From Chrysoperla carnea (taxonomy: Eukaryota > Arthropoda > Insecta > Neuroptera > Chrysopidae), in assembly GCF_905475395.1 (NCBI RefSeq), contig NC_058337.1:131957960-132021959 (forward strand): a stretch of DNA of 64,000 nucleotides, written 5' to 3'. Below, one piece after another: positions 37,071-60,431 of this stretch (positions are counted from its first letter, which is position 1; each line of letters opens with the position of its first letter). The notes beneath the pieces are model-generated. The model searched no databases and was not told the DNA's origin. It saw only the letters and a program-made list of their open reading frames with translations. A program made the translations under genes and the position numbers.

Positions 37071-37570
37071 AAAACTAAAATTATTTCCTTTTAATCGCCA
37101 CCGTGACAACTCCATTATTACGATCAGCCGGTGGTACTTTGGTGTACATTCAACAAACAGGGATTTTTTTATTTACTAATTTATATCAATCTTCATATCG
37201 TACCTGTATTCATAGGTGTTCATATGTAAGTTGATCATAGACTTACAAAATACATTTTTGAAGTAAATATAATAGACCTATAAACTACAACCACGGATCT
37301 AGTAATTATAGTAGGGATGTATTATAAAGTCCTACTTTAGACGAGGGGAGCGTATCACTTAGGGGGGGAAGCAATGTGCCTACTTTTGATTGGCTGCGGC
37401 TCTCATTTGCGGGAAATTCTAATAGAACGATAATATTTCGTGTGTTTTAGATTTTAATATTTCTATATCTATGGTTTTAGATTGCCTCAAGCAATATACC
37501 TACTTTTGATTGGCTGCGGTTGTTCGCACTCTCAATTGCGGGAAAATTTAAATGAGTAGCGAATTCTGCG
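37071..37570 (-). promoter_or_regulatory. EMC1 upstream region with a short tandem repeat
   Basis: Holds the EMC1 promoter by position. Two copies of a block starting acttttgattggctgcgg (about 37381 and 37500, period 119) lie just left of the segmental-duplication border. Each block has an ATTGG box (CCAAT on the EMC1 strand). Confidence 0.45.
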
Positions 37571-38245
37571 TGTGTTGTAGATTGGTCCGAGCAAAAAATC
37601 TTTCTATTTAAAGTAAAATCTTTTACCCTAAAGAAAAAAATGTATTTTTTTTTTTAAATACAATTTAGAAATTAATTACAAATATAATATTTTTAACTAA
37701 TTACCCTTGGATGAAGGAATATAACTTTAATATTCCTATGACCGACTAATTACCTAAAGAATACATCGTAAATATATCGTAAAAATTTAAAAATAAAACT
37801 TCACGTATTTAAATTAAGATTAGAATCACGGGTACATAATTCAAGTCATAAATTAGGTAAAAGTTCAGTTTAAGCACTTTTTCTTAAAAATCATCCTAGA
37901 ACATCAGGAAAAATAAACATTTTCAAGCATTTTTTACGTAGATTACGAATCCGTATGCGGAGATACCGAAAAACTTACAGTTTTTCTTTAATTCAGGAAA
38001 ATATGCTTTTTGAAAATATGAATTTTCTTGGTTAATACAAGTTATATTTCAAGCCTAAAATGGAATATATGGGCTAAATTAATTAAACATATGTTTTTAT
38101 TTACCTTATTTATTATTAAATATGTTAAAATTATACAAAAATTATAAAAATATATTCAATAAAATAATATTTTTAAATATTTATGTATTAAGTAGGTAAC
38201 ATTAAATTTTTGTGCGAGTAAATTTTTTATAACAAACGCTTTTCT

Positions 38246-41200
38246 TCAATAAGAGTCTGTTAAAGAAAATGGTTTTTCTTGAGTATGAGTCCGTTTATGA
38301 TTATCTAAACTGATTTTCTGAGTAAACGATTTATCACAAACCTCACAGGAATAAGGTTTTCTTCCACTATGAATTCGTTTGTGTGTAATTACACTGCTTC
38401 GCGTAGTAAATGATTTATCACAAACGTCACAGGAAAATGGTTTTTCTCTAGTATGCATTCGTTTGTGTGTAATTAAATTGTCTCGAATAGTAAATGTTTT
38501 ATCACAAACGTCACAGGAAAAAGGTTTTCTTCCACTATGAATTCGTTCATGTCTAAGTAAATTGGGTTTGTAAGTAAATACTTTATCACAAATTTCACAG
38601 ACAAAATGTTTTTCGCCAGTATGAGTCCGTGTATGACTATCTAAAATGGTTTTCTGAGTAAATGATTTATCGCAAATGTTACAAGAAAATGGTTTTTCTC
38701 CAGTATGCGTCCGTTTATGATAATCAAAATTGCTTCTCTGAGAAAATGATTTATCACAAAATTCACAGAAAAAAGGTTTTTCACCACTGTGAATTCGTTC
38801 ATGTACAATTAAATTGTTTTTGGAAGTAAATGCTTTATCACAAATTTCACAGGAAAATGGTTTTTCTCCAGTATGCGTCCATTTATGTACAACTAAACTG
38901 TTTTGCTGTGTATATGATTTACCACAAACGTCACAAGAGTAAGGTTTTTCTCCAGTATGAGTCCGTTTATGATAATCCAAACTGATTTTCTGAGAAAATG
39001 ATTTATCACAAAATTCACAGAAAAAAGGTTTTTTACCACTGTGAATTCGTTCATGTACAATTAAATTGTTTTTGGAAGTAAATACTTTATCACAAATTTC
39101 ACAGGAAAATGGTTTTTCTCCAGTATGCGTCCATTTATGTACAACTAAACTGTTTTGCTGTGTATATGATTTACCACAAACGTCACAAGAGTAAGGTTTT
39201 TCTCCAGTATGAGTCCGTTTATGATAATCCAAACTGATTTTCTGAGTAAATGATTTATCACAAAACTCACAAGAAAAAGGTTTTTCACCACTATGAATTC
39301 GTTCATGCACAATTAAATTGTTTTTGGAAGTAAATGCTTTATCACAAATTTCACAGGAAAAAGGTTTTCCTTCAATATGAGTCCATTTATGATTATCCAA
39401 ACTGAGTTTCTGAGTAAATGATTTATCACAAACTTCACAGGAAAAAAGTTTTTCTCCAGTATGAGTCCGTTTATGATTATCAAAACTGCTTCTCTGAGAA
39501 AATGATTTATCACAAAATTCACATGAAAAAGATTTTTCTTCGCTATGAATTCGTTTATGTTCAATTAAAGTGCTTTGATCAGCAAAATTTTTATCAGAAA
39601 CGTCACATGAAATATTTTTGTCTTCATTTTGAATTGATTGATGATCAAAAACAGTTTCATCAAATATTTCCTCCTTTATTATAATTTCTGTATTTAATTG
39701 ATTCTCAACTTCAACTGTTTTATTTTTATCCTGGGAAAACTCTTCATTCAAATCAATCCTTTCGTGTTTTGTTGTAACATTTTCTTCTTGTATTTCCTTT
39801 TTAATTGGTTCATGATCCTCCATTATATTATTTTCTTCTTTAATTGTTATATGTTCGATTGAATTACTTTCATCAAATTTTTCTTTTTTAATAATAATTT
39901 CAGAGTGCTTTTCTTCAATCAATATATTTCCATTAATTTTTCTTAGGTCGGACACAGTAGGACTTGATTTTAAAATAGTTTCAGCCTTTGATGAGGATGT
40001 GGCAACAGATATTAGTGACGGTTTCAAAGGTAATAATGTCTCGTCTCTTGATTTCACTTCACAAAAAATTTCTGGCACATTTGCTCCATCTGTTTGAAAA
40101 TCGGAAAAATTAATACAAGTATGTAAATATGAAATATATCAAGGTATACTAAGTTTAGTCCCAAGTTTGTAACGCTTAAAAATATACTACGAACAAAATT
40201 TCTGCCTATCTTTCTGTCGACACGATAACTCAAAAACAATCGACGAAGATATATCACCTGAAATTTTTATAACGGGCTTAGGGCGTAAAAAATGACGTCG
40301 AATTCGAAAGTTAACAACATAGGTCAATTGGGTCTTGAATCCGTACGATCCATGTTGAAAACCGTTAGAAATAGAACGAAGATTTGAATGTAAAAAATGT
40401 TCCTTATAAAAAAATAAACAACTTTTGGTTGAAATATATTTTCACAAACATTACTGTTTACTCGTGAGGGCGCAAATTAGGTGAATATCTTTCTGTACTT
40501 AAACGACGTAAAAAAAAACTTACGATTGCGTCATTAACACTTCCTATACATGATATTTCAACAATAGACCTTTTTCACATTTTTTTAAATGAAAGTATTT
40601 ATGAATGTCTTGATAAATAGGCTAATTTTTTTCCCCGATTTTTTTGGAGCCATATGACCGAGAAAACAGACAATGAAAATCATTAAAATTCAAATTGGCG
40701 AAAACGATACGGAAACACACGAAGTTATACGAAGGTCGGTTTGACGTCATTTAAAGTTGATAATAATGATATATTAATACAACTGTTGACACTGTTTTAT
40801 TGTCATTGCTTGTCGGATTGGCATAATAGATCACGTGTGCGGTGGAGCCAAAAAAAATCGTTTAAAATTATTTCAAATATTGTGTCTTTTTTACAATTTT
40901 TTTCATAGTGCTTTTATTGATAAAAATGCGTAATTTTCGAGTTACAGGCTCTACTCGACCTATATTTTCATAAAAAATTTACTAAAAGCATTTCTGTTTT
41001 TCATGAAAAAGGTCTATTAACTCAGTCAAATGTTAGTTTTCACTCGTTTTATTCATTCATTCAATAGGAGGTTGTTAGATGACCTTGAATCTGATTTTGC
41101 ATATCTGAGAAATTAACCCTTTCGCCGCCATCTAGGAAAATGACTTTTTTTTACGTTTTGGCTCTTATCTTACGTTTTATTAATTAAAATTTCATGATTT

Positions 41201-42378
41201 TGATGTCGTTGGGCTTGTCTGCGTTGTATCTTCAAACCCATTTATTTCAAACTACACGCTATGATTGATAGAAAAAAGTTATTCGTACAGAAGTTTTTAG
41301 ATGTACTGTTAAAAAAATATTTGCAAAAAACTGTTACAAACTGTTCAAACTCACGAAAACTTTGTTAATTTTGAATACGGATGACTTTTTTTCTATCAAT
41401 CGTAGTGTGCACTTTGACATAAATGGGTTTGAAGATAAAACGTAGACAAGTTCAACGACATCAAAATCATCATTTTTGAATGATTAGAACGTGGGCCAAA
41501 TTGTAAAAAAAAAGTTATTTTCTAAGATGACGGTGAAAGGGTAATTTCCCAAATACGCATTATCAGATTTAGGATCTTCAAAAAACCCTCTATTGAATGA
41601 ATGAATAAAAAAATCTAGTATAAAAACTTTTGGGCCAGTCAGTAAGTGCACCGGAATATTAAAAACGATAAAAAATTTGAGATATATTGTTTAAAACTTG
41701 AAATCATTTGTATTGCTTAACACATACTCGAACTTTTATCAGAAGTATCTTTGAAAGATGAACTTGGTGTACAACTTTCTTCTGGTTTAATCAGACCCTC
41801 TGCCATTACCATCATTCTTTTTTCTTTTAATGTATCCGACTGTTCTGTACTGTTGCATGGTCGTTTTCGTCCATCTTCTTGACATTCAAAGTTACTTGGA
41901 GCACAACCTGGTTTCAAACACACTTTTGATACTTTTCCCATAGCAATGTACTCGATATAATTTTCCATATCATTTGGCAACTAAAAAAACAAATAAAAGT
42001 GTGTCTATTACAATAAATAATAACACTAAAAAGCAATTCTAAATCATAAAACAAAAATAACATAACCTCAACTCATGCATGATTGTTTTATCAATAAACT
42101 TGAAAAATTCTGATACTGCCAATATCATCAGTTTTGCTTGAAACTAATTAAAATACAAAGATTGTGGTGTGTGAAATACTTACATCGAAATGGTCTTCAC
42201 AAAAATATATTCTTGAAATTGTGGATAAACTATTAAAATCAACCCTCTTTGCAAGCTTTAGCCACTTTTTCCGTATTTGTTCATTCTGAGGAACATAAAT
42301 AAATAATTTGTTTGGCGTGTTTAGAGTTGTACTTTTACACTGGGGCACTATACAGTTCTTCTAATACGAAGAATTCAT
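38246..42378 (-). pseudogene. THAP domain - C2H2 zinc-finger gene, copy 2 (interrupted)
   Basis: Three exons: 42378-42184, 41980-41728 and 40089-38246, with the same splice sites as the other copies. Codon 6 of the THAP exon is TAG (42363-42361) where copies 1 and 3 have Trp, so a full THAP domain cannot be made from the usual ATG. No other ATG restores the first zinc ligand. Exon 3 is open for 614 residues: an acidic linker with SUMO-type motifs, a degenerate finger and 15 C2H2 fingers. Three fingers are duplicated as a 252-bp block (38760-39011 and 39012-39263). The finger exon is intact, so a THAP-less finger protein from an alternative promoter remains possible. I call it a pseudogene on the THAP stop alone. 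Confidence 0.7.
40565..41030. mobile_element. MITE with ATAGACCTTTTTCA termini, copy 2
   Basis: Near full-length relative of 12083-12547, inside the large intron of THAP copy 2. The corresponding place in copy 3 keeps only the last 130 bases (51290-51422). Confidence 0.8.
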
Positions 42379-43139
42379 TTTTAATTAAAGTTAAGCTACA
42401 ACACGCTTTTGTCCACTAAGAATAAATCGATTGGATACAAGTTTCTAATGATTAATCATCATATGTAAATAACAAAACACAAAATTAATTTTTATAAAAT
42501 GTAAGGATTATTAATATTTTTAGATAATAATTTTCGTAAAACTATGCATCCGGTCACGTGACAGCAAACACCAATCAGATGTACTTAATGGTTATTTTAA
42601 CCTAAATGAGTTATATGTTGATAAATTAAAAAATACTTGTAGATTTAAACACTTATTAACACATTTATTTATTTAATTTACTCGTATACTATTTTAGAAT
42701 GCGACTGTAAGGTCTATTAAAATCAGTAGATAGTCTTCCTTAGCAGGATTGTCGAACTGTCGCCTGACGCTGGCGCCGGATGCCATGGATACAGCGAGGG
42801 TGCGTTCCATTAAGCGTTCACAGCGCAAACGCGGCTGTTTTAAATAAAAAGGTCTATGGAGCATGCAAAAGACTTTTTCATTTTAAATTAGGATCCTTTT
42901 GTACTTAAAAACTATTCTATAAGTCGGTACTGCTCGTTGCAATTACCTAAAGTTTGTACACAGGCTTTAATTAGATTTTTGTTTTTTAATGTTTGATTAT
43001 TGTTTATCAACATTTAAAAAAAACTTGATAAGAGAGTTCGAAGTTTTTGGTAAATCGTTACTGTTAGTTAATTAAAAATCATCGAATGTTTTGATTATTT
43101 AAATTCAGTTCGTGGCGTTATATGATTGAGTAAAAATTC
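42379..43139. promoter_or_regulatory. divergent upstream region, THAP copy 2 and repeat gene A
   Basis: THAP copy 2 runs left and the repeat gene runs right from here. It contains the conserved GC-rich block (about 42735-42840; gcgttcacagcgcaaacgcgg) that also precedes copies 1 and 3. Possible bidirectional promoter; no core motif assigned. Confidence 0.4.
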
Positions 43140-43350
43140 ATGAAATTTCTTTTAAGAATGGAACAATATATTGATGAATATATTGGTTTAAATATGTATT
43201 TAGTTAAAATTTATTTTGTAAGGCTTTTGTAAGGGAAAATTTTGGAATGGATGTTCAACAAATCACCTACAATTAGTCCATTTCCGTTAGTCCGCCTGTC
43301 CGCCAATTTGTCAACACGATAACTCAAAAACAAAAAGAGATATACCTATT

Positions 43351-45245
43351 ATAATCAAAATTAACCTAGGTCTGATAGGTTTCAAGAATGTGGAGTCCTG
43401 ATCCCAGAATTACACACATAAAAGATAGCTAACGAAAAACTGACATCACAGCTGAAAAGAATGACTCAAAATTAGTTGGTTTCAAAAAAAATTTCAATAA
43501 AATCGAATCAAATTTGCCTGTGTTAACAAAATAATCAAATTTTTTTTAACTCAATGACGTCATCAGAATCCAAAAAATTTAATTTTGCTCTATCACATCG
43601 AAATCTTATCCTATTAAATATGTAATCCTACTAAATTTGGGTCATTCTTTTCAAATTTGTTATGAAAATTAACCTAGGTCTAATAGGTTTCAAGAATGTG
43701 GAGTCCTGGTCCCGGAATTAAGCACATTATGATAGCTAGCGAAAAACTGACAACACAGCTGAAAAGAATGACTCAAAGCTAGTGGGTTTCAAAAAAAATT
43801 CCAATAAGATTGGATCAAATTTGCCTGTGTTAATAAAAAATCGAATTTTTTAACTCTTTATTTCGTCATCAGAATCCAAAAAATTTAATTTTGCTCTATC
43901 ACATCCAAATTTTATCCTATTTTGATAAACCAAATGTGTAATCCTACTAAATTTGGGTCATACTTTTCAAATTTGTTATGAAAATTAACCTAGGTCTAAT
44001 AGGTTTCAAGAATGTGGAGTCCTGGTCCCGGAATTAAGCACATTATGATAGCTAGCGAAAAACTGACAACACAGCTGAAAAGAATGACTCAAAGCTAGTG
44101 GGTTTCAAAAAAAATTCCAATAAGATTGGATCAAATTTGCCTGTGTTAATAAAAAATCGAATTTTTTAACTCTATGACGTCATCAGAATCCAAAAAATTT
44201 AATTTTGCTCTATCACATCCAAATTTTATCCTATTTTGATAAACCAAATATGTAATCCTACTAAATTTGGGTCATTCTTTTCAAATTTGTTATGAAAATT
44301 AACCTAGGTCTAATAGGTTTCAAGAATGTGGAGTCCTGGTCCCGGAATTAAGCACATTATGATAGCTAGCGAAAAACTGACAACACAGCTGAAAAGAATG
44401 ACTCAAAGCTAGTGGGTTTCAAAAAAAATTCCAATAAGATTGGATCAAATTTGCCTGTGTTAATAAAAAATCGAATTTTTTAACTCTATGACGTCATCAG
44501 AATCCAAAAAATTTAATTTTGCTCTATCACATCCAAATTTTATCCTATTTTGATAAACCAAATGTGTAATCCTACTAAATTTGGGTCATACTTTTCAAAT
44601 TTGTTATGAAAATTAACCTAGGTCTAATAGGTTTCAAGAATGTGGAGTCCTGGTCCCGGAATTAAGCACATTATGATAGCTAGCGAAAAACTGACAACAC
44701 AGCTGAAAAGAATGACTCAAAGCTAGTGGGTTTCAAAAAAAATTCCAATAAGATTGGATCAAATTTGCCTGTGTTAATAAAAAATCGAATTTTTTAACTC
44801 TATGACGTCATCAGAATCCAAAAAATTTAATTTTGCTCTATCACATCCAAATTTTATCCTATTTTGATAAACCAAATATGTAATCCTACTATATTTGGGT
44901 CATTCTTTTCAAATTTGTTATGAAAATTAACCTAGGTCTAATAGGTTTCAAGAATGTGGAGTCCTGGTCCCGGAATTAAGCACATTATGATAGCTAGCGA
45001 AAAACTGACAACACAGCTGAAAAGAATGACTCAAAGCTAGTGGGTTTCAAAAAAAATTCCAATAAGATTGGATCAAATTTGCCTGTGTTAACAAAAAATC
45101 GAATTTTTTTACTCTATGACGTCATCAGAATTCAAAAAATTTAATATTGCTCTATCACATCCAAATTTTATCCTATTTTGACAAACCAAATATGTAATCC
45201 TACTAAATTTGGGTCATACTTTCAAATTTGTTATCAAAATTAACC
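43351..45245. repeat. intronic 314-bp tandem repeat, six units
   Basis: Units start at the motif aacctaggtctaataggttt, at about 43363, 43671, 43987, 44301, 44615 and 44929 (periods 308-316). Units 2-6 are almost identical; the first is more divergent. Unit B of the segmental duplication has a single unit at 53749-54072. Each unit contains tatgacgtcatcagaatcc, with a palindromic TGACGTCA core. Confidence 0.93.
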
Positions 45246-47567
45246 TAAAAGAACGATTTGAATTTTCGGATGAATTACAAATTATGTGATAGTGTATGAA
45301 GTGGTAAAATTTTTTCAAAACTTATGGATATTAATTTGATTCTAGATCATAGTGCTTAATTATGTATCAGTCAAGACTGTATGTCATCCAATTCAAAATC
45401 AAATCTAAAAAATGGAAAAATTCATCGAGGTTATTTACCACTTAAATGTTGGTTAGACTTATTTGGAATTTTGGGTTTATGTAAGCGACCAGAAATTAAA
45501 ATTAGCCAAAACATTGATGTACTCATCGACACAAAAGAATTAACAGAAAACAAACAATATCGACAACAGGAACAACCCCTATCATTCTCATCATACGATC
45601 CATGCCATACCTATGGAGCAACGCCACCATTTAAGCCCAATCGAATAACTTTAGGGAAAAATGAGGAAATTGACCGGGGTTTAGCCCTTAACTGTTGGTT
45701 AGACCCATTTGGTAAATGGGGCTTATGTAAACAACCAGAAATTAATGTTAACAAAGATATAGGTGCGCTTATCGACCCAGAAGTTTTAGTTGAAAAGAAA
45801 TCATATCAACAACGAGACTATAATCCTTGCCCATCATACAACACCAATTTAAAGTCAAATTTCAATCAATCACAATCTTTCCATACCAACGAATCTGAAT
45901 TCGATTCTGTTGAATCATCACGATTTAGCTCCAATGAATTACAAAACGTAAAGCCTGATGGAATTTCACACTTCAATCGCAATGATTCATCATCAATACA
46001 TTCCAATGAGTTAATCTCAATCAGTACTAAAGAATCATCACAATTCAAACACAATGAATCAGACATTCATGATGGCACCTCACAATTCTACTGAATCGCT
46101 ACCATTAAATCCCAATAAACTACCACCAAGTAATATCACTGAATCCACAAAATTAAACGCCAAAGCAGCAACACAAATCAGTTCCAATGGATCATCACAA
46201 TTAAACCACAATGAACCATCTTCAATCGATCGCATTGAATCAGTAAGAGCGAACAGTAATGAATCGCTAGAAGTAAATCACAGTGAATCATCACAATTCA
46301 GTCCCAATGAATTGTTAAAATTGAATACCAAGGAATTATCTCCAATACCTAAGGAATCACTAAAATTTAATATTAGTGATTCAGCTCAATTAAATTCCCA
46401 TGAATCAAAAACATTCAAATTTAATGAATCTCTACAATTCAAATCCAATGAATCACTACAAAATATTCGCGATGATACATCACAATTCAACACTTATGAA
46501 TCATTACTATTGAATCCCAATGAATTATCCTCAATTAACTCTTATCAATCCCAATCACCGTTATTAAATATCAATCAATCTCCGTCTTTTAATCCAATAT
46601 TCAATTCTAATAAACCAACATTATTAAATCAATATCACACACAATTTTCCAATCCCATTCAATCACCACAACTTAACTCTTTTAAATTACCACCATATAA
46701 TTCTAATCAATTACCATCGTTAAATTCCCACCAATCCCAACCAACGTTATTAAATAGCAATCAACCTCTATCTTCCAATCCTATTCAATCACCACAATTT
46801 AACTCTTTGAAATTATCACCATATAATTCTAACCAAATACCATCGCCATCGTTAAATCCCCATCAATTCCAATCACCGTTATTAAAAAGCAATCAACGCC
46901 CATCTTTCAATCCTAATCAATCACAAACGTTAAATCCTTATCAAAGACAATCTATCAATCCTATTCAATCACCACAATTTAACTCCTTGAAATTATCACC
47001 ATATAATTCTAACCAATTACCATCTTTAAATCCCCATCAATCTCAACCACCGTTATTAAATCGCAATCAAGCTCCATCTTTTAATCCTAATCAATCACCA
47101 ACGTTAAATACTTATCAGACACAATCTTTCAATCTTATTCAATCGCCACAATTTAACTCATTGAAATTACCACCATATAATTCTAACCAATTACCGTCGT
47201 TAAATCACCATCAATCTCAACCAATGTTATTAAATCGCAATCAAGCTCCATCCTTTAATCCTAATCAATCACCAACATTAAATCCTTATCAAACACAATC
47301 TTTTAATCCTATTCAATCACCACAATTTAATTCTTTGAAATTACCACCATATAATTCTAATCAATCACCATCTTTAAATCCCCACCAATTCCAATCACCA
47401 TCAGTAAATAGCAACCAATCTCCATCTTTTAATCCTAATCAATCACCAACATTCAACTCCAATATATCACCATCATCAAATCTTTTTCGAACACCATCTT
47501 TTAATCCTATTCAATCACCACAATTTAACTCTTTGAAATTACCAACATATACTTCTAATCAATCACC

Positions 47568-47745
47568 TGTTGGATTTATTTAAAATGTTGCGCCATATAT
47601 GTGTAATAAGTGTCGGTTACTATGTGTACAATACTGTAATATATATATATAATAAACAAAAAGAAACAGTTGTTTCCGTATTCTCAATATAGATACACGT
47701 GTTATTTTTAATCGTTCTCTGCAAAAGATATTAATAAATTTAACA
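47568..47745. mobile_element. solo LTR of an LTR retrotransposon (fossil)
   Basis: It starts TG and ends CA (TGTTGG ... AACA), with an exact 5-bp target duplication tcacc (47563-47567, 47746-47750). Its interior has a TATA-like run and an AATAAA. At 178 bp with a 5-bp duplication it fits a short Copia-type LTR. No internal region is present. It is absent from the matching place in unit B, so it is younger than the segmental duplication. Confidence 0.85.
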
Positions 47746-48390
47746 TCACCATCGTTAAATTCCCACCAATCCCAACCACCGTTATTAAATCGCTATCAAC
47801 CTCCATCTTTTAATCCTAATCAATCACCAACATTAAACCCTAATCAAACACCATCTTTCAATCCTAATCAATCACCACAATTTAACTCTTTGAAATTACC
47901 ACAATATAATTCTAATCAATCACCCTCGTTAAATCCCCACCAATCCCAACCACCGTTATTAAATCGCTATCAACCTCCATCTTTTAATCCTAATCAATCA
48001 CCAACATTAAACCCTAATCAAACACCATCTTTCAATCCTATTCAATCACCACAATTTAACTCTTTGAAATTACCACAATATAATTCTAATCAATCACCCT
48101 CGTTAAATCCCCACCAATCCCAACCACCGTTATTAAATCGCTATCAACCTCCATCTTTTAATCCTAATCAATCACCAACATTAAACCCTAATCAAACACC
48201 ATCTTTCAATCCTATTCAATCACCACAATTTAACTCTTTGAAATTACCACAATATAATTCTAATCAATCACCATCGTTAAATCTCAATCAATTACCAACA
48301 TTAAATCTCAACCAATCACCATCTTTCAATCGAAATCAATCACCGTTATTAAATTCAAATCGATCACCATCATTTAATCTTAATCAATAA

Positions 48391-49335
48391 TCCATCTTTC
48401 TGACATTGATAATAGGCACAATAAATTATCACCAATCAAGCCAAATTAGTTACCACTCTTTAATCCTACTAAATCTCCATATACTTTGTGCGCCAAAAGC
48501 TACCACCAATCAAGCCAAATCAGTTACAACTATAAAATTAAAATAAAATATTTTGTAATCAATTTCATAGGCTTTAATTTTTTTTTTGCGGAACCCTATT
48601 TAAAAATATAAAATACAGCTTAATTTTTTTTAAATCGGACTAGTAGTTTTTGGAGTTAATTGTGTGTTGTAGATTAGTCCGAGCAAAAAATCTTTCTATT
48701 TAAAGTAAAATCTTTTACCCTAACGAAAAAAATGTATTTTTTTTAAATACAATTTAGAAATTAATTACAAATATAATATTTTTAACTAATTACCCTTGGA
48801 TGAAGAAATATACCTTTAATATTCCTATGTCCGACTCATTACCTAAAGAATATATCGTAAATAATTCGTAAAATAATAAAAATAAAACTTGACTTACTTA
48901 AATTAAGATTAGAATCACGGGTACATAATTCAATACATAAATTAGGTAAAAGTTCAGTTTAAGCACTTTTTCTTAAAAATCATCCTAGAACATCAGGAAA
49001 AAAAAAACATTTTCAAGCATTTTTTACGTAAATTACGAATTCGTATGCGGAGATACCGAAAAACTTACAGTTTTTCTTTAATTCAGGAAAATATGCTTTT
49101 TGAAAATATGAATTTTCTTGGTTAATACAAGTTATATTTCAAGCCTAAAATGGAATATATGGGTTAAGTTAATTAAACATATGTTTTTATTTACCTTATT
49201 TATTATTAAATATGTTAAAATTATACAAAAATTATAAAAATATATTCAATAAAATAATATTTTTAAATATTTATGTATTAAGTAGGTAACATTAAATTTT
49301 TGTGCGAGTAAATTTTTTATAACAAACGCTTTTCT
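48391..49335. other. intergenic with the unit A / unit B junction
   Basis: The tail of repeat gene A (to about 48655) runs directly into gtgtgttgtagattagtcc (48663), the start of unit B, and then the 3' flank of THAP copy 3. No gene seen. Confidence 0.7.
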
Positions 49336-52300
49336 TCAATAAGAGTCTGTTAAAGAAAATGGTTTTTCTTGAGTATGAGTCCGTTTATGATTATCTAAAC
49401 TGATTTTCTGAGTAAACGATTTATCACAAACCTCACAGGAATAAGGTTTTTCTCCAGTATGCGTCCGTTTATGATTATCTAAATTGCTTTTCTGAGTAAA
49501 CGATTTATCACAAACCTCACAGGAATATGGTTTTCTTCCACTATGAATTCGTTTGTGTGTAATTACACTGCTTCGCGTAGTAAATGATTTATCACAAATG
49601 TCACAGGAAAATGGTTTTTCTCCAGTATGCATTCGTTTGTGTGTAATTAAATTGTCTCGAATAGTAAATGTTTTATCACAAACGTCACAGGAAAAAGGTT
49701 TTCTTCCACTATGAATTCGTTCATGTCTAAGTAAATTGGGTTTGTAAGTAAATACTTTATTACAAATTTCACAGACAAAATGTTTTTCGCCAGTATGAGT
49801 CCGTGTATGACTATCTAAAATGGTTTTCTGAGTAAATGATTTATCGCAAATGTTACAGGAAAATGGTTTTTCCCCAGTGTGTGTCCATTTATGTACAACT
49901 AAACTGTTTTGCTGTGTATATGATTTACCACAAATGTCACAAGAGTAAGGTTTTTCTCCAGTATGAGTCCGTTTATGATAATCCAAACTGATTTTCTGAG
50001 TAAATGATTTATCACAAAACTCACAAGAAAAAGGTTTTTCACCACTATGAATTCGTTCATGCACAATTAAATTGTTTTTGGAAGTAAATGCTTTATCACA
50101 AATTTCACAGGAAAAAGGTTTTCCTTCAATATGAGTCCATTTATGATTATCCAAACTGAGTTTCTGAGTAAATGATTTATCACAAACTTCACAGGAAAAA
50201 AGTTTTTCTCCAGTATGAGTCCGTTTATGATAATCAAAACTGCTTCTCTGAGAATATGATTTATCACAAAATTCACAGGAAAAAGGTTTTTCACCACTAT
50301 GAATTCGTTTATGCACAATTAAATTATTTTTCGTTGTAAATGTTTTATTACAAATTTTACAGGAAAAAGGTTTTTCTTCAGAATGAGTCCATTTGTGATT
50401 ATCCAAATTGAGTTTCTGACTAAATGATTTATCACAAAATTCACAGGAAAAAGGTTTTTCGCCACTATGAGTTCGTTCATGTATAACTAAATTGTGTTTG
50501 AAATTAAATGCTTTATCACAAATTGAACATGAAAAACGTTTTTCTCCAGTATGGATTTGTTCATGTCGAATTAAATCATGTTTTACAGTAAAGGTTTTAT
50601 CACAAATTGTACATGAAAAAGATTTTTCTTCGCTATGAATTCGTTTATGTACAATTAAAGTGCTTTGATCAGTAAATTTTTTATCACAAACGTTACATGA
50701 AGTATTCTCGTCTTCACTTTGAATTGATTGATGATCAAAAACAGTTTCATCAAATGTTTCCTTCTTTATTATAACTTCTGCATTTAATTGATTTTCAACT
50801 TTAACTGTTTTATATTTATCCATGGAAAACTCTTCATTCAAATCAATCCTTTCGTGTTTTGTTGTAACATTTTCTTCTTGTATTTCCTTTTTAATTGGTT
50901 CATGATCCTCCATTATATTATTTTCTTCTTTAATTGTTATATGTTCGATTGAATTACTTTCATCAAATTTTTCATTTTTAATAATAATTTCAGAGTGCTT
51001 TTCTTCAATCAATATATTTCCATTAATTTTTCTTAGGTCGGACACAGTAGGACTTGATTTTAAAATATTTTCAGCATTTGATGGGGATGTGGCAACAGAT
51101 ATTAGTGACGGTTTCAAAGGTGATAATGTCTCGTCTCTTGATTTCACTTCACAAAAAATTTCTGGCACATTTGCTCCATCTGTTTGAAAATCGGAAAAAT
51201 TAATACAAGTATGTAAATATGAAATAAATCAAGGTATACTAAGTTTAGTCCCAAGTTTGTAACGCTTAAAAATATTGATGCTACATGACATTTTTACAAT
51301 TTTTTTCATAATGTTTTTATTGATAAAAATGCGTAATTTTCGAGTTACAGGCTCTACTCGACCTATATTTTCATAAAAAATTAACAAAAAACATTTCTGT
51401 TTTTCATGAAAAAGGTCTATTAAACTCAGTCAAATGTTAGTTTTCACTTGTTTTATTCATTTGTTCAATAGGGGGTTGTTAGATGACCTTAAATCTGATT
51501 TTGCATATCTGAGAAATTAACCTTTTCGCCGCCATCTAGGAAAATGACTTTTTTTTACGTTTTGGCTCTTATCTTACGTTTTATTAATTAAAATTTCATG
51601 ATTTTGATGTCGTTGGGCTTGTCTGCGTTGTATCTTCAAACCCATTTATTACAAACTACACGCTATGATTGATAGAAAAAAGTTATTCGTACAGAAGTTT
51701 TTAGATGTACTATTAAAAAATTATTTTCAAAAAACTGTTACGAACTGTTCAAACCCACGAAAAATTTGTTAATTTTGAAAACGGATGACTTTTTTTTCTA
51801 TCAATCGTAGTGTGCACTTTGACATAAATGGGTTTGAAGATAAAACGTAGACAAGTTCAACGACATCAAAATCATCATTTTTGAATGATTAGAACGTGGG
51901 CCAAATTGTAAAAAAAAGTTATTTTCTAAGATGACGGAGAAAGGGTAATTTCTCAAATACGCATTATCAGATTTAGGATCTTCAAAAAACCCTTTATTAA
52001 ATGAATTAATAAAAAAATTTAGTATAATAACGTTTGGGTCAGTCCGTAAGTGCACTGGAATATTAAAAACGATAAAAAATTTGAGATATATTGTTTAAAA
52101 CTTGAAATCATTTGTATTGCTTAATACATACTCGAACTTTTATCAGAAGTATCTTTGAGAGATGAACTTGGTGTACCATTTCCTTCTGGTTTAATCAGAC
52201 CCTCTGCCATCACCATCATTCTTTTTTCTTTTAATGTATCCGACTGTTCTGTACTGCTGCATGGTCGTTTTCGTCCATCTTCTTGGCATTCAAATTTACT

Positions 52301-52782
52301 TGGAGCACAACCTGGTTTCAAACACACTTTTGATACTTTTCCCATAGCAATGTACTCGATATAATTTTCCATATCATTTGGCAACTAAAAAAACAAATAA
52401 AAGTGTGTCTATTACAATAAATAATAACACTAAAAAGCAATTCTAAATCATAAAACAAAAACAACATAACCTCAACTCATGCATGATTATTTTATCAATA
52501 TACTTGAAAAATTCTGATACAGCCAATTTCATCAGTTTTGTTGAAACTTATAAAATACAAAGATTGTGGTGTGTGAAATATACTTACATCGAAATGATCT
52601 TCACAAAAATACATTCTTGAAACTGTTGATAAACTATTAAAATCAACCCCCTTTGCAAGTTTTAGCCACTTTTTTCGTATTTGTTCATTCTGAGGAACAT
52701 AAATAAATAATTTGTTTGGCGTTTTTAGAGTTGTACTTTTACACTGTGGCACTATACAGTTCTTCCAATTCGAAGAATTCAT
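49336..52782 (-). CDS. THAP domain - acidic - C2H2 zinc-finger protein, copy 3
   Basis: Three exons: 52782-52588, 52384-52132 and 51179-49336; sizes of exons 1 and 2 (195 and 253) equal those of copy 1, and the product is 763 residues. The THAP domain is complete: CIVPQC at 9-14, W39, C60-E-D-H63, and LKPGCAPSKF at 87-96 as the AVPTIF-like box. The acidic linker repeats psi-K-x-E motifs (IIKNE, IKEE, IKKE, VKVE). Sixteen C2H2 fingers follow, and the first finger, degenerate in copies 1 and 2, here has both cysteines (CNVCDKKF). It is the only intact member of the two duplicated units. A nuclear DNA-binding role is expected; the target is unknown. Confidence 0.87.
51290..51422. mobile_element. 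MITE with ATAGACCTTTTTCA termini, truncated copy 3
   Basis: Contains gtaattttcgagttacaggc and the right end catgaaaaaggtctatta. The left two thirds are missing, replaced at the sequence after aacgcttaaaaatattga. Confidence 0.75.
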
Positions 52783-53546
52783 TTTTAATTTAAGTTAAGC
52801 CACAACAGGCTTTCGTCCAATAAGAATAAATCGATTGGATACAAGTTTCTAATGATAAATCATAATATGTAGATAAAAAACACTAAATTAATTTTTATAA
52901 AATGTAAGGATTATTAATATTTTTAGATAATAATTTTCGTAAAACTATGCATCCATGTCACGTGACAGCAAACACCAATCGGATGTACTTAATGGTTATT
53001 TTAACCTAAATGAGTTATATGTTGATAAATTTAAAAATACTTGTAGATTTAAACACTTATTTATTTAATTTGAATGCGACTGTAAGGTCTATTAAAATCA
53101 GTAGATAGTCTTCCTTAGCAGGATTGTCGAACTGTCGCCTGACGCCGGCGCCGGCTGCCATGGATACAGCGAGGGTGCGTTCGATTAAGCGTTCACAGCG
53201 CAAACGCGGCTGTTTTAAATAAAAAGGTCTATGGAGCATGCAAAAGACTTTTTCAATTTAAATTAGGATCCTTTTGTATTTCGAAACTATTCTATAAGAC
53301 GGTACTGCTCGTTGCAATTACCTAAAGTTTGTACACAGGCTTTAATTAGATTTTTGTTTTTAATGTTTGATTATTGTTTATCAACATTTAAAAAAAAACT
53401 TGATAAGAGAGTTCGAAGTTTTGGCAACTGCAGAAATTCATCATAATTGGTGGTTCATAAATCGTTACTGTTAGTTAATTAAAAATCATTGAATGTTTTG
53501 ATTGTTTAAATTCAGTTCGTGGCGTTATATGATTGAGTAAAAATTC
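52783..53546. promoter_or_regulatory. divergent upstream region, THAP copy 3 and repeat gene B
   Basis: Holds the conserved GC-rich block (about 53085-53215) with ccatggatacagcgagggt and gcgcaaacgcggc. The 764-bp spacing between the THAP and repeat-gene starts is the same arrangement as in unit A. Likely shared or back-to-back promoters. Confidence 0.4.
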
Positions 53547-56500
53547 ATGAAATTTCTTTTAAAAATGGAACAATTGGGACGGTTATTATTCATTTTGGTG
53601 AATATATTGGTTTAAATATGTATTTAGTTAAATTTTATTTTGTAAGGCTATTGTAAGGCAGAATTTTGGAATTAGTCCATTTCCGTTAGTCCGCCAATTT
53701 GTCAACACGATAACTCAAAAACAAAAAGAGATATATCTATTGTAATCAAAATTAACCTAGGTCTAATAGGTTTCAAGAATGTGGAGTCCTGGTCCCGGAA
53801 TTACACACATAAAAGATAGCTAACGAAAAACTGACATCACAGCTGAAAAAAATGACTCAAAATTAGTTGGTTTCAAAAAAAATTTCAATAAAATCGAATC
53901 AAATTTGCCTGTGTTAACAAAATAATCAAATTTTTTAACTCAATGACGTAATCAGAATCCAAAAAATTTAATTTTGCTCTATCACATCCAAATTTTATCC
54001 TATTTTGATAAACCAAATATGTAATCCTACTAAATTTGGGTCATACTTTTCAAATTTGTTATCAAAATTAACCTAAAAGAACGATTTGAATTTTCGGATG
54101 AATTACAAATTATGTGATAGTGTATGAAGTGGTAAAATTTTTTCAAAACTTATGGATATTAATTTGATTCTAGATCATAGTGCTTAATTATGTATCAGTC
54201 AAGACTGTATGTCATCCAATTCAAAGTCAAATCTATAAAAATGGAAAAATTCATCGAGGTTATTTACCACTTAAATGTTGGTTAGACTTATTTGGAATTT
54301 TGGGTTTATGTAAGCGACCAGAAATTAAAATTAGCCAAAACATTGATGTACTCATCGACAACAAACAATATCGACAGCAAGAACAACCTCTATCATTCCT
54401 ATCAAACGACCCCTGTCATACCTATGGAGCACCACCAGTACTTAACCCCAATCGAATAACTTTAGGGAAAAATAAGGAAATTGATCGGCGTTTAGCCCTT
54501 AACTGTTGGTTAGACCCATTTGGTAAATGGGGTTTATGTAAACAACCAGAAATTAATGTTAACAAAGATATAGGTGCGCTTATCGACCCAGAAGTTTTAG
54601 TAGAAAAGAAATCCTATCAACAACGAGACTATAATCCTTGCTCATCGTATAACATCAATTTAAAGTCAAATTTCAATCAATCACAATCATTTAATATTAA
54701 CGAATCTCAATTCGATTCTGTTGAATCATCACGATTTAGCTCCAATGAATTACAAAACGTGAAGTCTGATGGAATTTCACACTTAAATCGCAATGAATCA
54801 TCATCAATAAATTCCAATGAGTTAATCTCAATCAGTACCAAAGAGTCGCCACAACACATTGAATCAGGCATTCATGATGGCACCTCACAATTCAACTCTA
54901 GTGAATCGCTACCATTAAATCCCAATGAACTATCACCAAGTAAACTCACTGAATCTACAAAATTAAACGCCAAAGCAGCAACACAAATCAGTTCCAATGG
55001 ATCATCACAATTAAACCTCAATGAACCATCTTCAATCGATCGCATTGAATCGTTACCAGCGAACACAAATGAATCGCTACAAATAGATCACAGTGAATCA
55101 TCACAATTCAGTCCCAATGAATTGCTGAAATGGAATACCAAGGAATTATCTCCAATACCTAACGAATCACTAAAATTTAATATTAATGATTCAGCTCAAT
55201 TAAATTCCTATGACTCAAAAGCATTCAAATTTAATGAATCACTACAATTCAAATCCAATGAATCACTACAAGATATTCGAGATGATACCTCACAATTCAA
55301 CACTAGTGAATTACTACTATTGAATCCCAATGAATTATCCTCAATTAACTCTTATCAATCCCAATCACCGTTATTAAATATCAATCAATCTCCGTCTTTT
55401 AATCCAATATTCAATTCTAATAAACCACCATTATTAAATCCATATCAAACACAATCTTTCAATCCCATTCAATCACCATCGTTAAATCCCCATCAATCGC
55501 AATCACCGTTATTAAATAGCAATCAATCTTCGTCTTTTAATCCAACATTCAACTCCAATAAACCAACATTATTAAATCAATATCACACACAATTTTCCAA
55601 TCCCATTCAATCACCACAATTTAACTCTTTTAAATTACCACCATATAATTCTAATCAATTACCACCGTTAAATCCCCATCAATTCCAATCACCGTTATTA
55701 AAAAGCAATCAACGTCCATCTTTTAATCCTAATCAATCACCACAATTTAACTCTTTGAAATTACCACCATACAATTCTAATCAATTACCACCGTTAAATC
55801 CCCATCAATTCCAATCACCGTTATTAAAAAGCAATCAACGTCCATCTTTTAATCCTAATCAATCACCACAATTTAACTCTTTGAAATTACCACAATATAA
55901 TTCTAATCAATTACCATCGTTAAATCACCATCAATCTCAACCAATGTTATTAAATCACAATCAAGCTCCATTCTTTAATCCTAATCAATCACCAACATTA
56001 AATCCTTATCAAACACAATCTTTCAATCCTATTCAATCACCACAATTTAATTCTTTGAAATTAACACCAAATAATTCTAACCAATTACCATCGTTAAATA
56101 TCCATCAATCTCAGCCACCGTTATTAAATCACAATCAAGCTCCACCTTTTAATCCTAATCAATCACCAACGTTAAATACTTATCAAACACAATCTTTCAA
56201 TATTATTCAATCACCACAATTTAACTCTTTGAAATTACCACCGAATAATTCTAACCAATTACCGTCGTTAAATCACCATCAATCTCAACCAATGTTATTA
56301 AATCGCAATCAAGCTCCATCCTTTAATCCTAATCAATCACCAACATTAAATCCTTATCAAACACAATCTTTTAATCCTATTCAATCACCACAATTTAATT
56401 CTTTGAAATTAACACCAAATAATTCTAACCAATTACCATCGTTAAATATCCATCAATCTCAGCCACCGTTATTAAATCACAATCAAGCTCCACCTTTTAA

Positions 56501-57995
56501 TCCTAATCAATCACCAACGTTAAATACTTATCAAACACAATCTTTCAATATTATTCAATCACCACAATTTAACTCTTTGAAATTACCACCAAATAATTCT
56601 AACCAATTACCGTCGTTAAATCACCATCAATCTCAACCAATGTTATTAAATCGCAATCAAGCTCCATCCTTTAATCCTAATCAATCACCAACATTAAATC
56701 CTTATCAAACACAATCTTTCAATCCTATTCAATCACCACAATTTAATTCTTTGAAATTAACACCAAATAATTCTAACCAATTACCATCGTTAAATATCCA
56801 TCAATCTCAGCCACCGTTATTAAATCACAATCAAGCTCCACCTTTTAATCCTAATCAATCACCAACGTTAAATACTTATCAAACACAATCTTTCAATATT
56901 ATTCAATCACCACAATTTAACTCTTTGAAATTACCACCGAATAATTCTAACCAATTACCGTCGTTAAATCACCATCAATCTCAACCAATGTTATTAAATC
57001 GCAATCAAGCTCCATCCTTTAATCCTAATCAATCACCAACATTAAATCCTTATCAAACACAATCTTTTAATCCTATTCAATCACCACAATTTAATTCTTT
57101 GAAATTAACACCAAATAATTCTAACCAATTACCATCGTTAAATATCCATCAATCTCAGCCACCGTTATTAAATCACAATCAAGCTCCACCTTTTAATCCT
57201 AATCAATCACCAACGTTAAATACTTATCAAACACAATCTTTCAATATTATTCAATCACCACAATTTAACTCTTTGAAATTACCACCAAATAATTCTAACC
57301 AATTACCGTCGTTAAATCACCATCAATCTCAACCAATGTTATTAAATCGCAATCAAGCTCCATCCTTTAATCCTAATCAATCACCAACATTAAATCCTTA
57401 TCAAACACAATCTTTTAATCCTATTCAATCACCACAATTTAATTCTTTGAAATTACCACCATATAATTCTAATCAATCACCATCTTTAAATCCCCACCAA
57501 TTCCAATCACCATCAGTAAATAGCAACCAATCTCCATCTTTTAATCCTAATCAATCACCAACATTTAACTCCAATATATCACCATCATCAAATCTTTTTC
57601 GAACACCATCTTTTAATCCTATTCAATCACCACAATTTATCTCTTTGAAATTACCAACATATACTTCTAATCAATCATCATCGTTAAATTCCCACCAATC
57701 CCAACCACCGTTATTAAATCGCTATCAACCTCCATCTTTTAATCCTAATCAATCACCAACATTAAACCCTAATCAAACACCATCTTTCAATCCTATTCAA
57801 TCACCACAATTTATCTCTTTGAAATTACCACAATATATTTCTAATCAATCACCTTCGTTAAATCCCCACCAATCCCAACCACCGTTATTAAATCGCTATC
57901 AACCTTCATCTTTTAATCCTAATCAATCAGCAACATTAAACCCTAATCAAACACCATCTTTCAATCCTAATCAATCACCACAATTTAACTTTTAG
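53547..57995 (+). CDS. predicted secreted Asn/Gln/Pro/Ser-rich repeat protein, copy B
   Basis: I do not recognise this family. Two exons are proposed: 53547-53597 and 54174-57995, giving about 1290 residues. Joining them in phase 0 gives MKFLLKMEQLGRLLFIL then IIVLNYVSV, a good signal peptide split by the intron. Next are two related modules, KCWLDLFGILGLCKRPEI (C52, C63) and NCWLDPFGKWGLCKQPEI (C128, C139). A Ser/Asn/Glu-rich part (SNELSSINS-like repeats) follows, then about 900 residues of repeats such as SPTLNPYQTQSFNP, with almost no Gly, Ala, charge or Cys. Within 56055-57450 a 348-bp (116-residue) unit occurs four times. Such composition suits an extracellular structural, adhesive or salivary material, but that is inference. 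The stop at 57993 precedes about 150 bases that still match copy A's coding tail, so this protein is slightly shortened. Confidence 0.7.
53749..54072. repeat. single unit of the 314-bp intronic repeat
   Basis: One copy in the intron of repeat gene B, equivalent to the first, more divergent unit at 43363 in unit A and ending like the last one. Confidence 0.85.
56055..57450 (+). repeat. coding higher-order repeat, 348 bp x 4
   Basis: The marker ttgaaattaacaccaaataa recurs at about 56055, 56403, 56751 and 57099. Each 348-bp unit is two diverged 174-bp (58-residue) subunits. The four units differ at only a few positions, so they are recent. Confidence 0.92.
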
Positions 57996-58405
57996 AAATT
58001 ACCACAATATAATTCTAATCAATCACCATAGTTAAATCTCAATCAATTACCAACATTAAATCTCAACCAATCTCCATCTTTCAATCGAAATCAATCACCG
58101 TTATTAAATTCTAATCGATCACCATCATTTAATCTTAATCAATAATCCATCTTTCCGACATTGATAATAGGCACAATAAATTATCACCAATCCAGCCAAG
58201 TTAGTTATCACTCTTTAATCCTACTAAATCTCTATATTTTGTGCGCCAAAAACTAGAACCAATCAAGCCAAATCAATTACAACTATAAAATTAAAATAAG
58301 ATATTTTGTAATCAATTTCATAGGCTTTAATTTTTTTTTGTGGAGCCCTATTTAAAAATATAAAATACAGCTTAATTTTTTTTAAATCGGACCAGTAGTT
58401 TTTGA
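57996..58405 (+). other. former coding tail and 3' flank of repeat gene B
   Basis: Up to 58146 the sequence still matches the coding C-terminus of copy A, but follows an in-frame TAG. It then continues as shared 3' flank to the duplication border. Confidence 0.75.
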
Positions 58406-60431
58406 GTTTTTTCATTACAAAGACAATTATCGAGTGAACTTTCAAACCAAAAGTATCTACCAGGATATTTTTAAGTTATAGAAAAAACTAACAGATGGCT
58501 GTTTGGTATTTAGTAAAGTGTGCTGGTTTATTTTTTCAGTTCTTAGTTTTATTAAAGTTTTATTATATATCGTCCGGTTATAATGATTTCTTTTACATAA
58601 AAAAATTCAAAATTATTAGTCTAGATTTAAACCTTATCTCTGTAAATTTTCTACATGCACGCCAAAGTGGTTCAGTTGAAGTAGGAACATTTAGAGATTG
58701 TAAGAGCAAATATGATACAGAACAGGGATTCAGATAAAGAATTATTAATAAACATCATAGAAATAATAACAATATTTGAAAGCGGTACTTTTTAAAGGTA
58801 CCCTCTAGTGATACTTAACGACAACTTCAATTCGAACTCATCCTTCACATGTTTTGTGCTTTCATGAACCATTCATAGATGACTTTAATGGCCCATAAAA
58901 ATTAATAAATAAAAATTTCACGCGTGATAATTTTCCTGAAATAATATATTATGATATATATTTTATATATATGTATTTTTTTGGATCAAAAGTAAGTTTG
59001 TATAAGGAAAACTTTTATGTATATTATGAAAAAGATATGCATTAAACAGGGTGTTGTTTCTAATTTACTAACAAAGATAATCGCGATTCTCTTGAAAGCG
59101 AACGATCTCAGAAATCAACAAAAGGTTAATTCAGCGTTGCTAGCGTAAAACTTCTATGTGGCTTCATTATCTTATTTATTTGAATTTTCACTAATATTAC
59201 CGGTGTTTTTAAATAATGATATTATTTATTCATAGATGTATAGGCAATATTATTACATAAATGATTAAAGCATTGTATGAAAACTCAAATTAGTACTATA
59301 ATGAAACGATATAGAAGTTACATGTATTTTGCAAGCGGGAAGAAATCTTGAATATTTTAGTTGATTTCAGTAACTTTTAACTGATTTCCAATTTAGACTA
59401 CCTGGTTACTTACCATTTTTCAATATAGGCCTAGTCTTTTCAGTACATCTTGATATTATAACACAACGAATGGCGTAAAATCCAGATCGTTATCATCTAT
59501 CATTTACGATCAATCGAGTACGAAAAATATGTACGAATGAACGGTAAACGATAGATTAGTATGTTAAAAATTTCGATTTGATTTTTTGGACCTATTATAA
59601 TAGCTTCCCTGTACTGGGAAGTTAAAAAGGAAGCCACATCAAATCTTCTATTTGGAAAAACAAGTCTATGTGAACTAATTTCGTAGATACCCTGTATATT
59701 TATTTATTTTTTTGAAAGTTTATATAAGTATATGTGCCAATTCCATTGCAGAATAGTAAAAAGTTTATTTCAGATTCAGATATTTTGTAGTAGTAAATAT
59801 AAATATTATAAAATTATTTTTGTTTATTTTGTCTATGACAGCAAGGATGCAGTTATGTATGTGTTTTTGATGAAAAACTATATTAAAACTATTCACATAC
59901 TCCCATATGATCTAAATTCTAAACTGATATGAATAGTATTTTTATTTTATATACTCCTTAATTTTAAATCAATCTGAAAATAATTAGGTTTCTCCGAAAA
60001 TACAATAAAAAAAAACGTCAATTTTTTTGGAATTATGTTCCTTATCGCACGTGCTAATTTGTTTGCTGTTTGGGAGGTAAAACCAAAAAAAAAAATGCAA
60101 TAAATAAAAACGACCGCAAAAACCGACATATAAACTACCTTTGGGGAATTGAAGCTATTTTAATCGATTCAGCTTGCTATGAATTTTGAGAATATGCAAA
60201 AATATTTTACAATTAGTATTTTTTGTTCAAAATTTATGTTTCATTAAAAGAAAATGAGTTGTGAGTTATCAGAAGTTAAAGATAATAGAGATAATTTAAA
60301 GTAAGTACAAGGAAATTTTTGGTTATGTCATAGTAGATATCTTGATCAAACCAAGTGAAGGTAATCAGTAATGTACGCACATATTGGGTTGACTACTAAA
60401 TCAGAAGTATAGCTTATTTTTTAAACTAATA
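58406..60431. other. unassigned AT-rich intergenic DNA
   Basis: No gene, RNA or repeat with clear ends seen. Short open frames at 58495 and 59732 have no recognisable features. Confidence 0.5.

What the first reader, a model, noticed from the sequence alone, without database searches (positions are those of the whole stretch)
53547..57995. Unrecognised secreted protein of Asn/Gln/Pro/Ser repeats with a split signal peptide
A proposed 17-codon first exon (53547-53597) joins in phase to exon 2 to form a clear hydrophobic leader. About 900 residues of SPxxNPNQ/HQSQPP-type repeats follow. It lacks the Gly/Ala of fibroins and spidroins. I know no named family with this composition plus a Cys-containing head; it is a candidate new extracellular material (salivary sheath, glue, silk-like or egg coat).
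Basis: partly seen in the sequence, partly recalled or inferred. Interest (0 to 1): 0.8.

Follow-up and report, generated by a model that had tools for sequence, protein, structure and literature searches.

The report
Lacewing secreted Asn/Gln/Pro repeat protein family
This looks like a real two-exon gene of the green lacewing Chrysoperla carnea, one of a small family of secreted proteins with a cysteine head and a long repetitive tail, which may be part of one of the insect's glues, silks or coatings, although where it is made is not known.

Summary
The window is chromosome 1 of the green lacewing Chrysoperla carnea. The proposed first exon is supported by three further genes on the same chromosome, 129-131 Mb away, with a 33-nt first exon, donor TG|GTGAATA, phase 0 and a hydrophobic exon-2 start. 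The conserved start codon is 53565, not 53547. The leader is split, about half of its hydrophobic core lying in exon 2. The model encodes 1,284 aa: signal peptide; a Cys head with two C-W-L-D-x-F-G-x-x-G-L-C motifs; an Asn/Ser/Glu-rich linker; and about 870 residues of P-x-[FL]-N-x-N-Q-type octads, many in 58-aa units. The head shows purifying selection between copies B and A (dN/dS 0.23). Copy A (43.2-48.4 kb), in a tandem duplication of about 10 kb, is damaged. Searches of this genome found four intact genes and this damaged copy, all on chromosome 1; B and one other share the octad period, one has 20-aa repeats. No significant match in Pfam, PDB, viral or prokaryote collections. Published C. 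carnea egg-stalk silks (Gly/Ala/Ser 16-mers) differ. Best reading: a disordered, disulphide-linked secreted matrix or adhesive protein. Expression, tissue and function are untested; published tissue RNA-seq of this species could decide.

The parts
53565..53597 (+). exon 1 (33 nt, MEQLGRLLFIL), ends TTG|GTGAATA, phase 0
   Evidence: same length, donor core and phase in 3 paralogs; zero-mismatch pattern hits at all 4 (the pattern was built from these four)
   Evidence: no counterpart ATG in the three distant paralogs; present in copy A
53598..54173 (+). intron 1 (576 nt), carrying one copy of a genomic repeat (period about 314 bp) at 53740-54075
   Evidence: paralog introns 303, 366 and 258 nt
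54174..57995 (+). exon 2: rest of leader, Cys head, linker, octad array, TAG stop
54210..54668 (+). cysteine head, two modules CWLDLFGILGLCK and CWLDPFGKWGLCK, each followed later by a single Cys
   Evidence: 27 invariant columns among 4 modules (two each from copies A and B); dN/dS 0.23 against copy A over 54174-54680; similar to heads of paralogs C and D
54669..55330 (+). Asn/Ser/Glu-rich degenerate octad linker
   Evidence: dN/dS 0.55, p 0.07 over 54681-55330
55331..57992 (+). N/Q/P/S octad array, with 58-aa (174-bp) and 116-aa (348-bp) higher-order units
43158..48390 (+). copy A, read as a pseudogene: 17-nt deletion in exon 1 and donor GT->AT, 1-nt and 5-nt deletions in exon 2, insertion with a stop
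   Evidence: alignment; ORF breaks
47568..47745 (.). 178-bp TG...CA insertion flanked by TCACC in copy A (solo-LTR-like)
   Evidence: read from sequence; LTR nature inferred
37570..58408 (.). tandem segmental duplication (37570-48657 and 48662-58408), each unit with a zinc-finger gene (-) and this gene (+)

Best explanation
The window holds an intact gene (copy B) of a small lacewing family of secreted matrix proteins. Supported by comparison: a 33-nt first exon splices in phase to exon 2 and encodes the n-region and part of the h-region of a signal peptide; a Cys head follows; then a long low-complexity tail whose 8-residue period and P-x-[FYL]-[NY]-x-N-Q register are shared with one distant paralog. 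Inferred: the product enters the secretory pathway and the leader is cut near residue 22 (-3/-1 rule, by eye). The head forms two disulphide hairpins and a leftover Cys (odd count once the leader is gone) links chains. The tail is disordered, with regularly spaced Phe/Leu/Tyr 'stickers' in polar N/Q/P/S 'spacers' and, in the main array, one Lys and one Tyr per 58 residues. It condenses and sets outside the cell as a glue, coating or fibre matrix. Candidate sites, in my order: larval Malpighian-tubule/anal adhesive or cocoon coating, female accessory (colleterial) gland, venom or saliva.
For: Exon 1 conserved in 3 of 3 distant paralogs. Leader unlikely by chance. Mature heads B-D z 7.1, 0 of 2000 shuffles as good; B-C z 6.2, 2 of 2000. 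Purifying selection on the head, Fisher p 4e-4. Period-8 autocorrelation 0.312 against a shuffled mean of 0.114 in B, and 0.277 against 0.109, 0 of 500 shuffles, in the tail of paralog C. No dibasic site in B's 1,124-aa tail. Chrysopid larvae make a proteinaceous adhesive in the Malpighian tubules that review PMC9697091 says still needs proteomics (passages).
Against: No transcript or protein data were seen. The 58-aa units show no excess of third-position change (variable columns 7, 7, 8), so the tail may be drifting by unit turnover. Copy B seems truncated relative to copy A. Paralog E's mature head has no recognisable similarity to B's (975 of 2000 shuffles as good; leaders 12 of 2000) and its tail differs. 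Heads of C and D show no significant constraint between them (p 0.53). Structure prediction was uninformative (pLDDT 33).
Confidence: 0.6

Rival explanations
1. It is a disordered component of larval venom or saliva rather than a material.
For: PMC12758981 (passages) reports 7 uncharacterised core venom genes in this same species, several of them with high predicted disorder.
Against: The sequences of those genes were not seen; 900 residues of N/Q/P octads would be unusual for a venom protein (my judgement).
Confidence: 0.15
2. A mucin-like coat or eggshell protein: the Ser/Thr-Pro rich tail is O-glycosylated and works as a hydrated lubricant or barrier.
For: Tail S+T 20.8% and P 14.6%, 48 SP/TP sites.
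Against: N+Q (30%) exceed S+T; hydrophobic F/L at fixed positions are unlike mucin tandem repeats (recalled); Thr only 4.3%.
Confidence: 0.15
3. A decaying or barely used orphan gene: copy A is dead, copy B has lost its original stop, and the array expands by slippage without function.
For: Copy A damaged; B has two TAG codons before the position of A's stop; no codon-position signal in the array.
Against: dN/dS 0.23 on the head; an open frame of 1,273 codons that includes a non-repetitive head; three further intact family members.
Confidence: 0.15

Closest known systems
C. carnea egg-stalk silks ChryC1-3 (MalXB1/2 of Mallada signata)
   Same: lacewing secreted repetitive proteins with non-repetitive ends and Cys, disordered in solution (PMC5485732, parts 1 and 2 of 4 and passages)
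   Different: ChryC are Gly/Ala/Ser with 16-residue repeats and a C-terminal Cys/Asp motif; this has an N-terminal Cys head, N/Q/P/S octads, almost no Gly/Ala in the tail and no Cys after residue 167. Their sequences were not compared directly
Lacewing cocoon protein MalFibroin (Weisman 2008; only its citation and a mention in PMC9697091 seen)
   Same: secreted by Chrysopidae larvae
   Different: recalled as an alpha-helical Ala-rich protein; no sequence compared
Insect glue and mucin-like repeat proteins (Sgs, egg glue, sericin; recalled)
   Same: signal peptide and rapidly evolving low-complexity repeats (recalled)
   Different: no sequence compared; neither the head motif nor the octad tail gave a Pfam match over its cut-off

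Membership tests
ChryC/MalXB egg-stalk silk | Gly/Ala/Ser-rich core | tested here: not met
   tail G 0.4%, A 1.5%; Ser is 16.5%
ChryC/MalXB egg-stalk silk | 16-residue periodicity | tested here: not met
   main periods 58 (0.567) and 8 (0.312); 16 appears as a weaker multiple of 8 (0.268)
ChryC/MalXB egg-stalk silk | C-terminal Cys/Asp motif | tested here: not met
   last Cys is residue 167 of 1,284; copy B may have lost about 50 C-terminal residues, which in copy A hold no Cys
ChryC/MalXB egg-stalk silk | colleterial gland expression | not testable with these tools
   no expression data
fibroin/spidroin | Gly/Ala-rich repeats | tested here: not met
mucin | Ser/Thr/Pro-dominated repeats with dense O-glycosylation | tested here: inconclusive
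   S+T 20.8% but N+Q 30%; glycosylation not testable
multi-copy peptide precursor (antimicrobial or neuropeptide) | dibasic cleavage sites between repeats | tested here: not met
   0 dibasic pairs in B's 1,124-aa tail; 3 in the 449-aa tail of paralog C
the Chrysoperla leader-Cys-head family described here | 33-nt exon 1, TG|GTGAATA, phase 0, exon 2 starting I-x-[VI] | tested here: met
   4 of 4 intact genes
the Chrysoperla leader-Cys-head family described here | C-[LW]-L-D-x-x-G-x-x-G-[LI]-C motif | tested here: met
   3 of 4 intact genes (B, C, D); E lacks it

The most novel reading that the evidence does not exclude
The family supplies the chemically undefined proteinaceous adhesive that chrysopid larvae make in their Malpighian tubules: a new class of animal glue or silk built on Gly/Ala-poor Asn-Gln-Pro-Ser octads with regularly spaced Phe/Leu/Tyr stickers and cross-linked through an odd-cysteine N-terminal head.
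Probability: 0.13. Interest if true: 0.75.

Novelty: new variant of a known kind. Interest (0 to 1): 0.45.

Why it matters
Lacewings make several protein materials; the only sequenced lacewing silks that I found or recall are the egg-stalk silks and one cocoon fibroin. A second, apparently unrelated family of repetitive secreted proteins with a conserved gene signature gives candidates for the uncharacterised larval adhesive or for coatings. Tissue RNA-seq and Iso-Seq of this species, including the anal defence gland, already exist (PMC12758981), so the question can be settled by mapping reads.

Tried and rejected
Rejected: alternative first exons 53618-53641 (MYLVKFYF|GTAAGG) and 53160-53174 (best donor score, 5.53), both in phase. 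Rejected: salivary sheath (the animal is a lacewing), fibroin/spidroin, egg-stalk silk and peptide precursor (see membership test). Led nowhere: Pfam (no hit over cut-off; below it, MSV199 E 0.01 in paralog C and N-glycanase_C E 0.2 in D), PDB by sequence (none; one at E 0.94), viral contigs and genome contigs with the four-module alignment (39 and 31 pattern stretches, none confirmed), AlphaFold of the head without an alignment (pLDDT 33, so no fold search was made), codon-position test on 9 array units, literature on N/P/Q tandem-repeat insect adhesives (1 paper, on ciliates), lacewing silk genomics (2 papers, neither relevant by listing), larval anal secretion (listings; no protein sequence seen), and PMC11319779 (passages only). 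The weak hit C4:61271420 is another frame of a Thr/Glu/Ser repeat gene and was dropped. Pattern hits C1:39299491 and C2:80220503 and the 8 hits with 2-3 mismatches were not followed and are taken as chance.

Full report
Organism. The window lies at C1:131957960-132021959 of a 337-contig genome. C1 is 139,979,878 bases, exactly the longest scaffold of inChrCarn1.1, which also has 337 scaffolds (PMC10116181, part 1 of 2); the base totals given differ slightly (559.5 here, 560.2 Mb there). The window is therefore chromosome 1 of the green lacewing Chrysoperla carnea.

The observation. ORF 54174-57995 is real, 1,273 codons, with no Met until far into the repeats, so it needs an upstream exon. Enumerating in-phase first exons in 52800-54173 gave 119 candidates (40 shown). 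Over 53300-54173, phase-0 joins to 54174 only, it was the maximum. Shuffled upstream sequence reached 3.9 in 0 of 400 cases with donor score at least 0.3, and in 3 of 400 with at least -1.2. The splice weights were recalled, so these scores are rough.

The strongest evidence came from paralogs. A weak repeat hit at C1:783034 (E 0.03) led to a locus with two genes of the same plan, and a search with one of them gave a weak hit (E 0.24) to a third at C1:3.042 Mb. All three have a 33-nt exon 1 (MEKLKLMIFIL twice, MAKLKWMIYIL), donor TG|GTGAATA, phase 0, introns of 303, 366 and 258 nt and acceptors ending TAG; exon 2 begins ITIGGLIS, IIVADLIC or IAVGDLIC. The window gene has MEQLGRLLFIL, TTG|GTGAATA, a 576-nt intron and IIVLNYVS. 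So the junction 53597/54174 is very probably right and the conserved start is 53565. The ATG at 53547 has no counterpart in the alignment of the three distant paralogs; copy A has it. Rival first exons have no counterpart there by a literal string search.

The protein. 1,284 aa from 53565, Cys at 24, 46, 57, 92, 122, 133, 167. Its two head modules, with those of copy A, share 27 invariant columns. Paralogs C (540 aa) and D (183 aa) carry the C-[LW]-L-D-x-x-G-x-x-G-[LI]-C-K motif; E (236 aa) does not. Similarity of mature heads: B-D z 7.1 (0 of 2000 shuffles as good), B-C z 6.2 (2 of 2000), C-E z 9.0 (0 of 2000), B-E none (975 of 2000); leaders B-C 4, B-D 0 and B-E 12 of 2000. E therefore belongs through C and D and the exon-1 signature. 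The tail of B has period 8 (autocorrelation 0.312; shuffled mean 0.114, maximum of 50 shuffles 0.138) and 58 (0.567). The tail of C has period 8 (0.277) and 95 (0.37), that of E period 20 (0.524); in each case 0 of 500 shuffles reached the value. Anchored on NQ (45 sites in B, 22 in C), B and C share the loose register P-x-[F/Y/L]-[N/Y]-[P/S]-N-Q-[S/Q]-P.

Selection. Between copies B and A the head has dN/dS 0.23 (12.5 changes at 399 nonsynonymous sites, 13.5 at 105 synonymous; Fisher p 4e-4 on counts rounded down), the linker 0.55 (p 0.07), the early octads 0.51 (not tested) and all 504 codons 0.43 (p 5e-5). Other pairs, N-terminal codons only: D-E p 0.001, B-D p 0.009, C-E p 0.17, C-D p 0.53. 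In 9 array units the variable columns by codon position are 7, 7 and 8: no sign of selection there. Synonymous divergence (0.14) exceeds that of upstream noncoding sequence (3.6% over 2,107 aligned bases), and about 290 bases around the start of exon 2 differ by one substitution and one indel; patchy gene conversion would explain both but was not tested.

Copy A. Within a tandem duplication (37570-48657 and 48662-58408) that includes a zinc-finger gene with an upstream THAP exon (THAP shown for the second unit), copy A has lost 17 nt of exon 1 and the donor GT, has 1-nt and 5-nt deletions in exon 2 and a 178-bp TG...CA insertion with TCACC on both sides. I read it as a pseudogene. Copy B's stop is TTG in copy A, and a second TAG follows in B before the position of A's stop, so B probably lost about 50 C-terminal residues.

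Family size. Protein and pattern searches of the whole genome gave five loci that I accept, all on chromosome 1. The pattern was built from the four intact members, so their hits are by construction; it gave 8 further hits with 2-3 mismatches, and its reversed control gave 1. One search gave 5 hits, 3 of them members, and none for its reversed control. These searches score only the best candidates and profiles are not accepted for this genome, so distant members may be missed.

Known kinds. No Pfam match over a cut-off, nothing convincing in PDB, none confirmed in viral or prokaryote contigs. The egg-stalk silks of this species differ in composition, period and Cys position as described in PMC5485732. 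No eukaryote protein database was at hand, so 'no relative' is limited to these searches and this genome. NCBI has annotated this genome; whether this gene is in that annotation was not checked.

How it may work. Secretion is supported by gene structure. Disulphide hairpins, a leftover Cys for chain linking, a disordered sticker-and-spacer tail and setting outside the cell are inference from sequence. The review PMC9697091 (passages) says that larvae of some chrysopids, C. carnea included, use a proteinaceous adhesive from the Malpighian tubules whose relation to cocoon silk is unresolved. The 2025 venom study PMC12758981 (outline, section 7 and passages) has tissue RNA-seq including the anal defence gland, mentions one uncharacterised protein exclusive to that gland and 7 uncharacterised core venom genes, several disordered. 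Any of these could include this family; I could not see their sequences.

Verdict. A well-supported, secreted orphan family of the lacewing genome; material role plausible and unproven.

Noticed in passing
G000:C1:138886723-138887493 (L009), 139382497-139383821 (L003), L065 (138.70 Mb): Bacterial sequence near the end of lacewing chromosome 1: a bacterial 16S gene (Rickettsia-like by eye), an open COX1 frame without stops and transposase-like frames at 138.70 Mb, with insect-like sequence at 139.00 and 139.97 Mb (by eye). Integrated bacterial DNA or scaffolding error.
   Followed up: partly
53740-54075 and 43357-45247: A repeat of period about 314 bp in the intron, once in copy B and about six times in tandem in copy A; the intron query gave 202 genome matches in all, window copies included.
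   Followed up: partly
52560-52783 (-) with 49336-51228 (-): THAP domain exon (Pfam E 3.8e-9) divergent from this gene, probably the first exon of the duplicated C2H2 zinc-finger gene.
   Followed up: partly
47568-47745: 178-bp TG...CA insertion with 5-bp TCACC repeats in copy A, solo-LTR-like.
   Followed up: partly
L035:3782-4459 (-): Paralog E with five ~20-aa repeats TKKPSVVNVITTKSPNANKS; its C-terminus and stop region resemble those of the 540-aa paralog by eye although the tails differ.
   Followed up: partly
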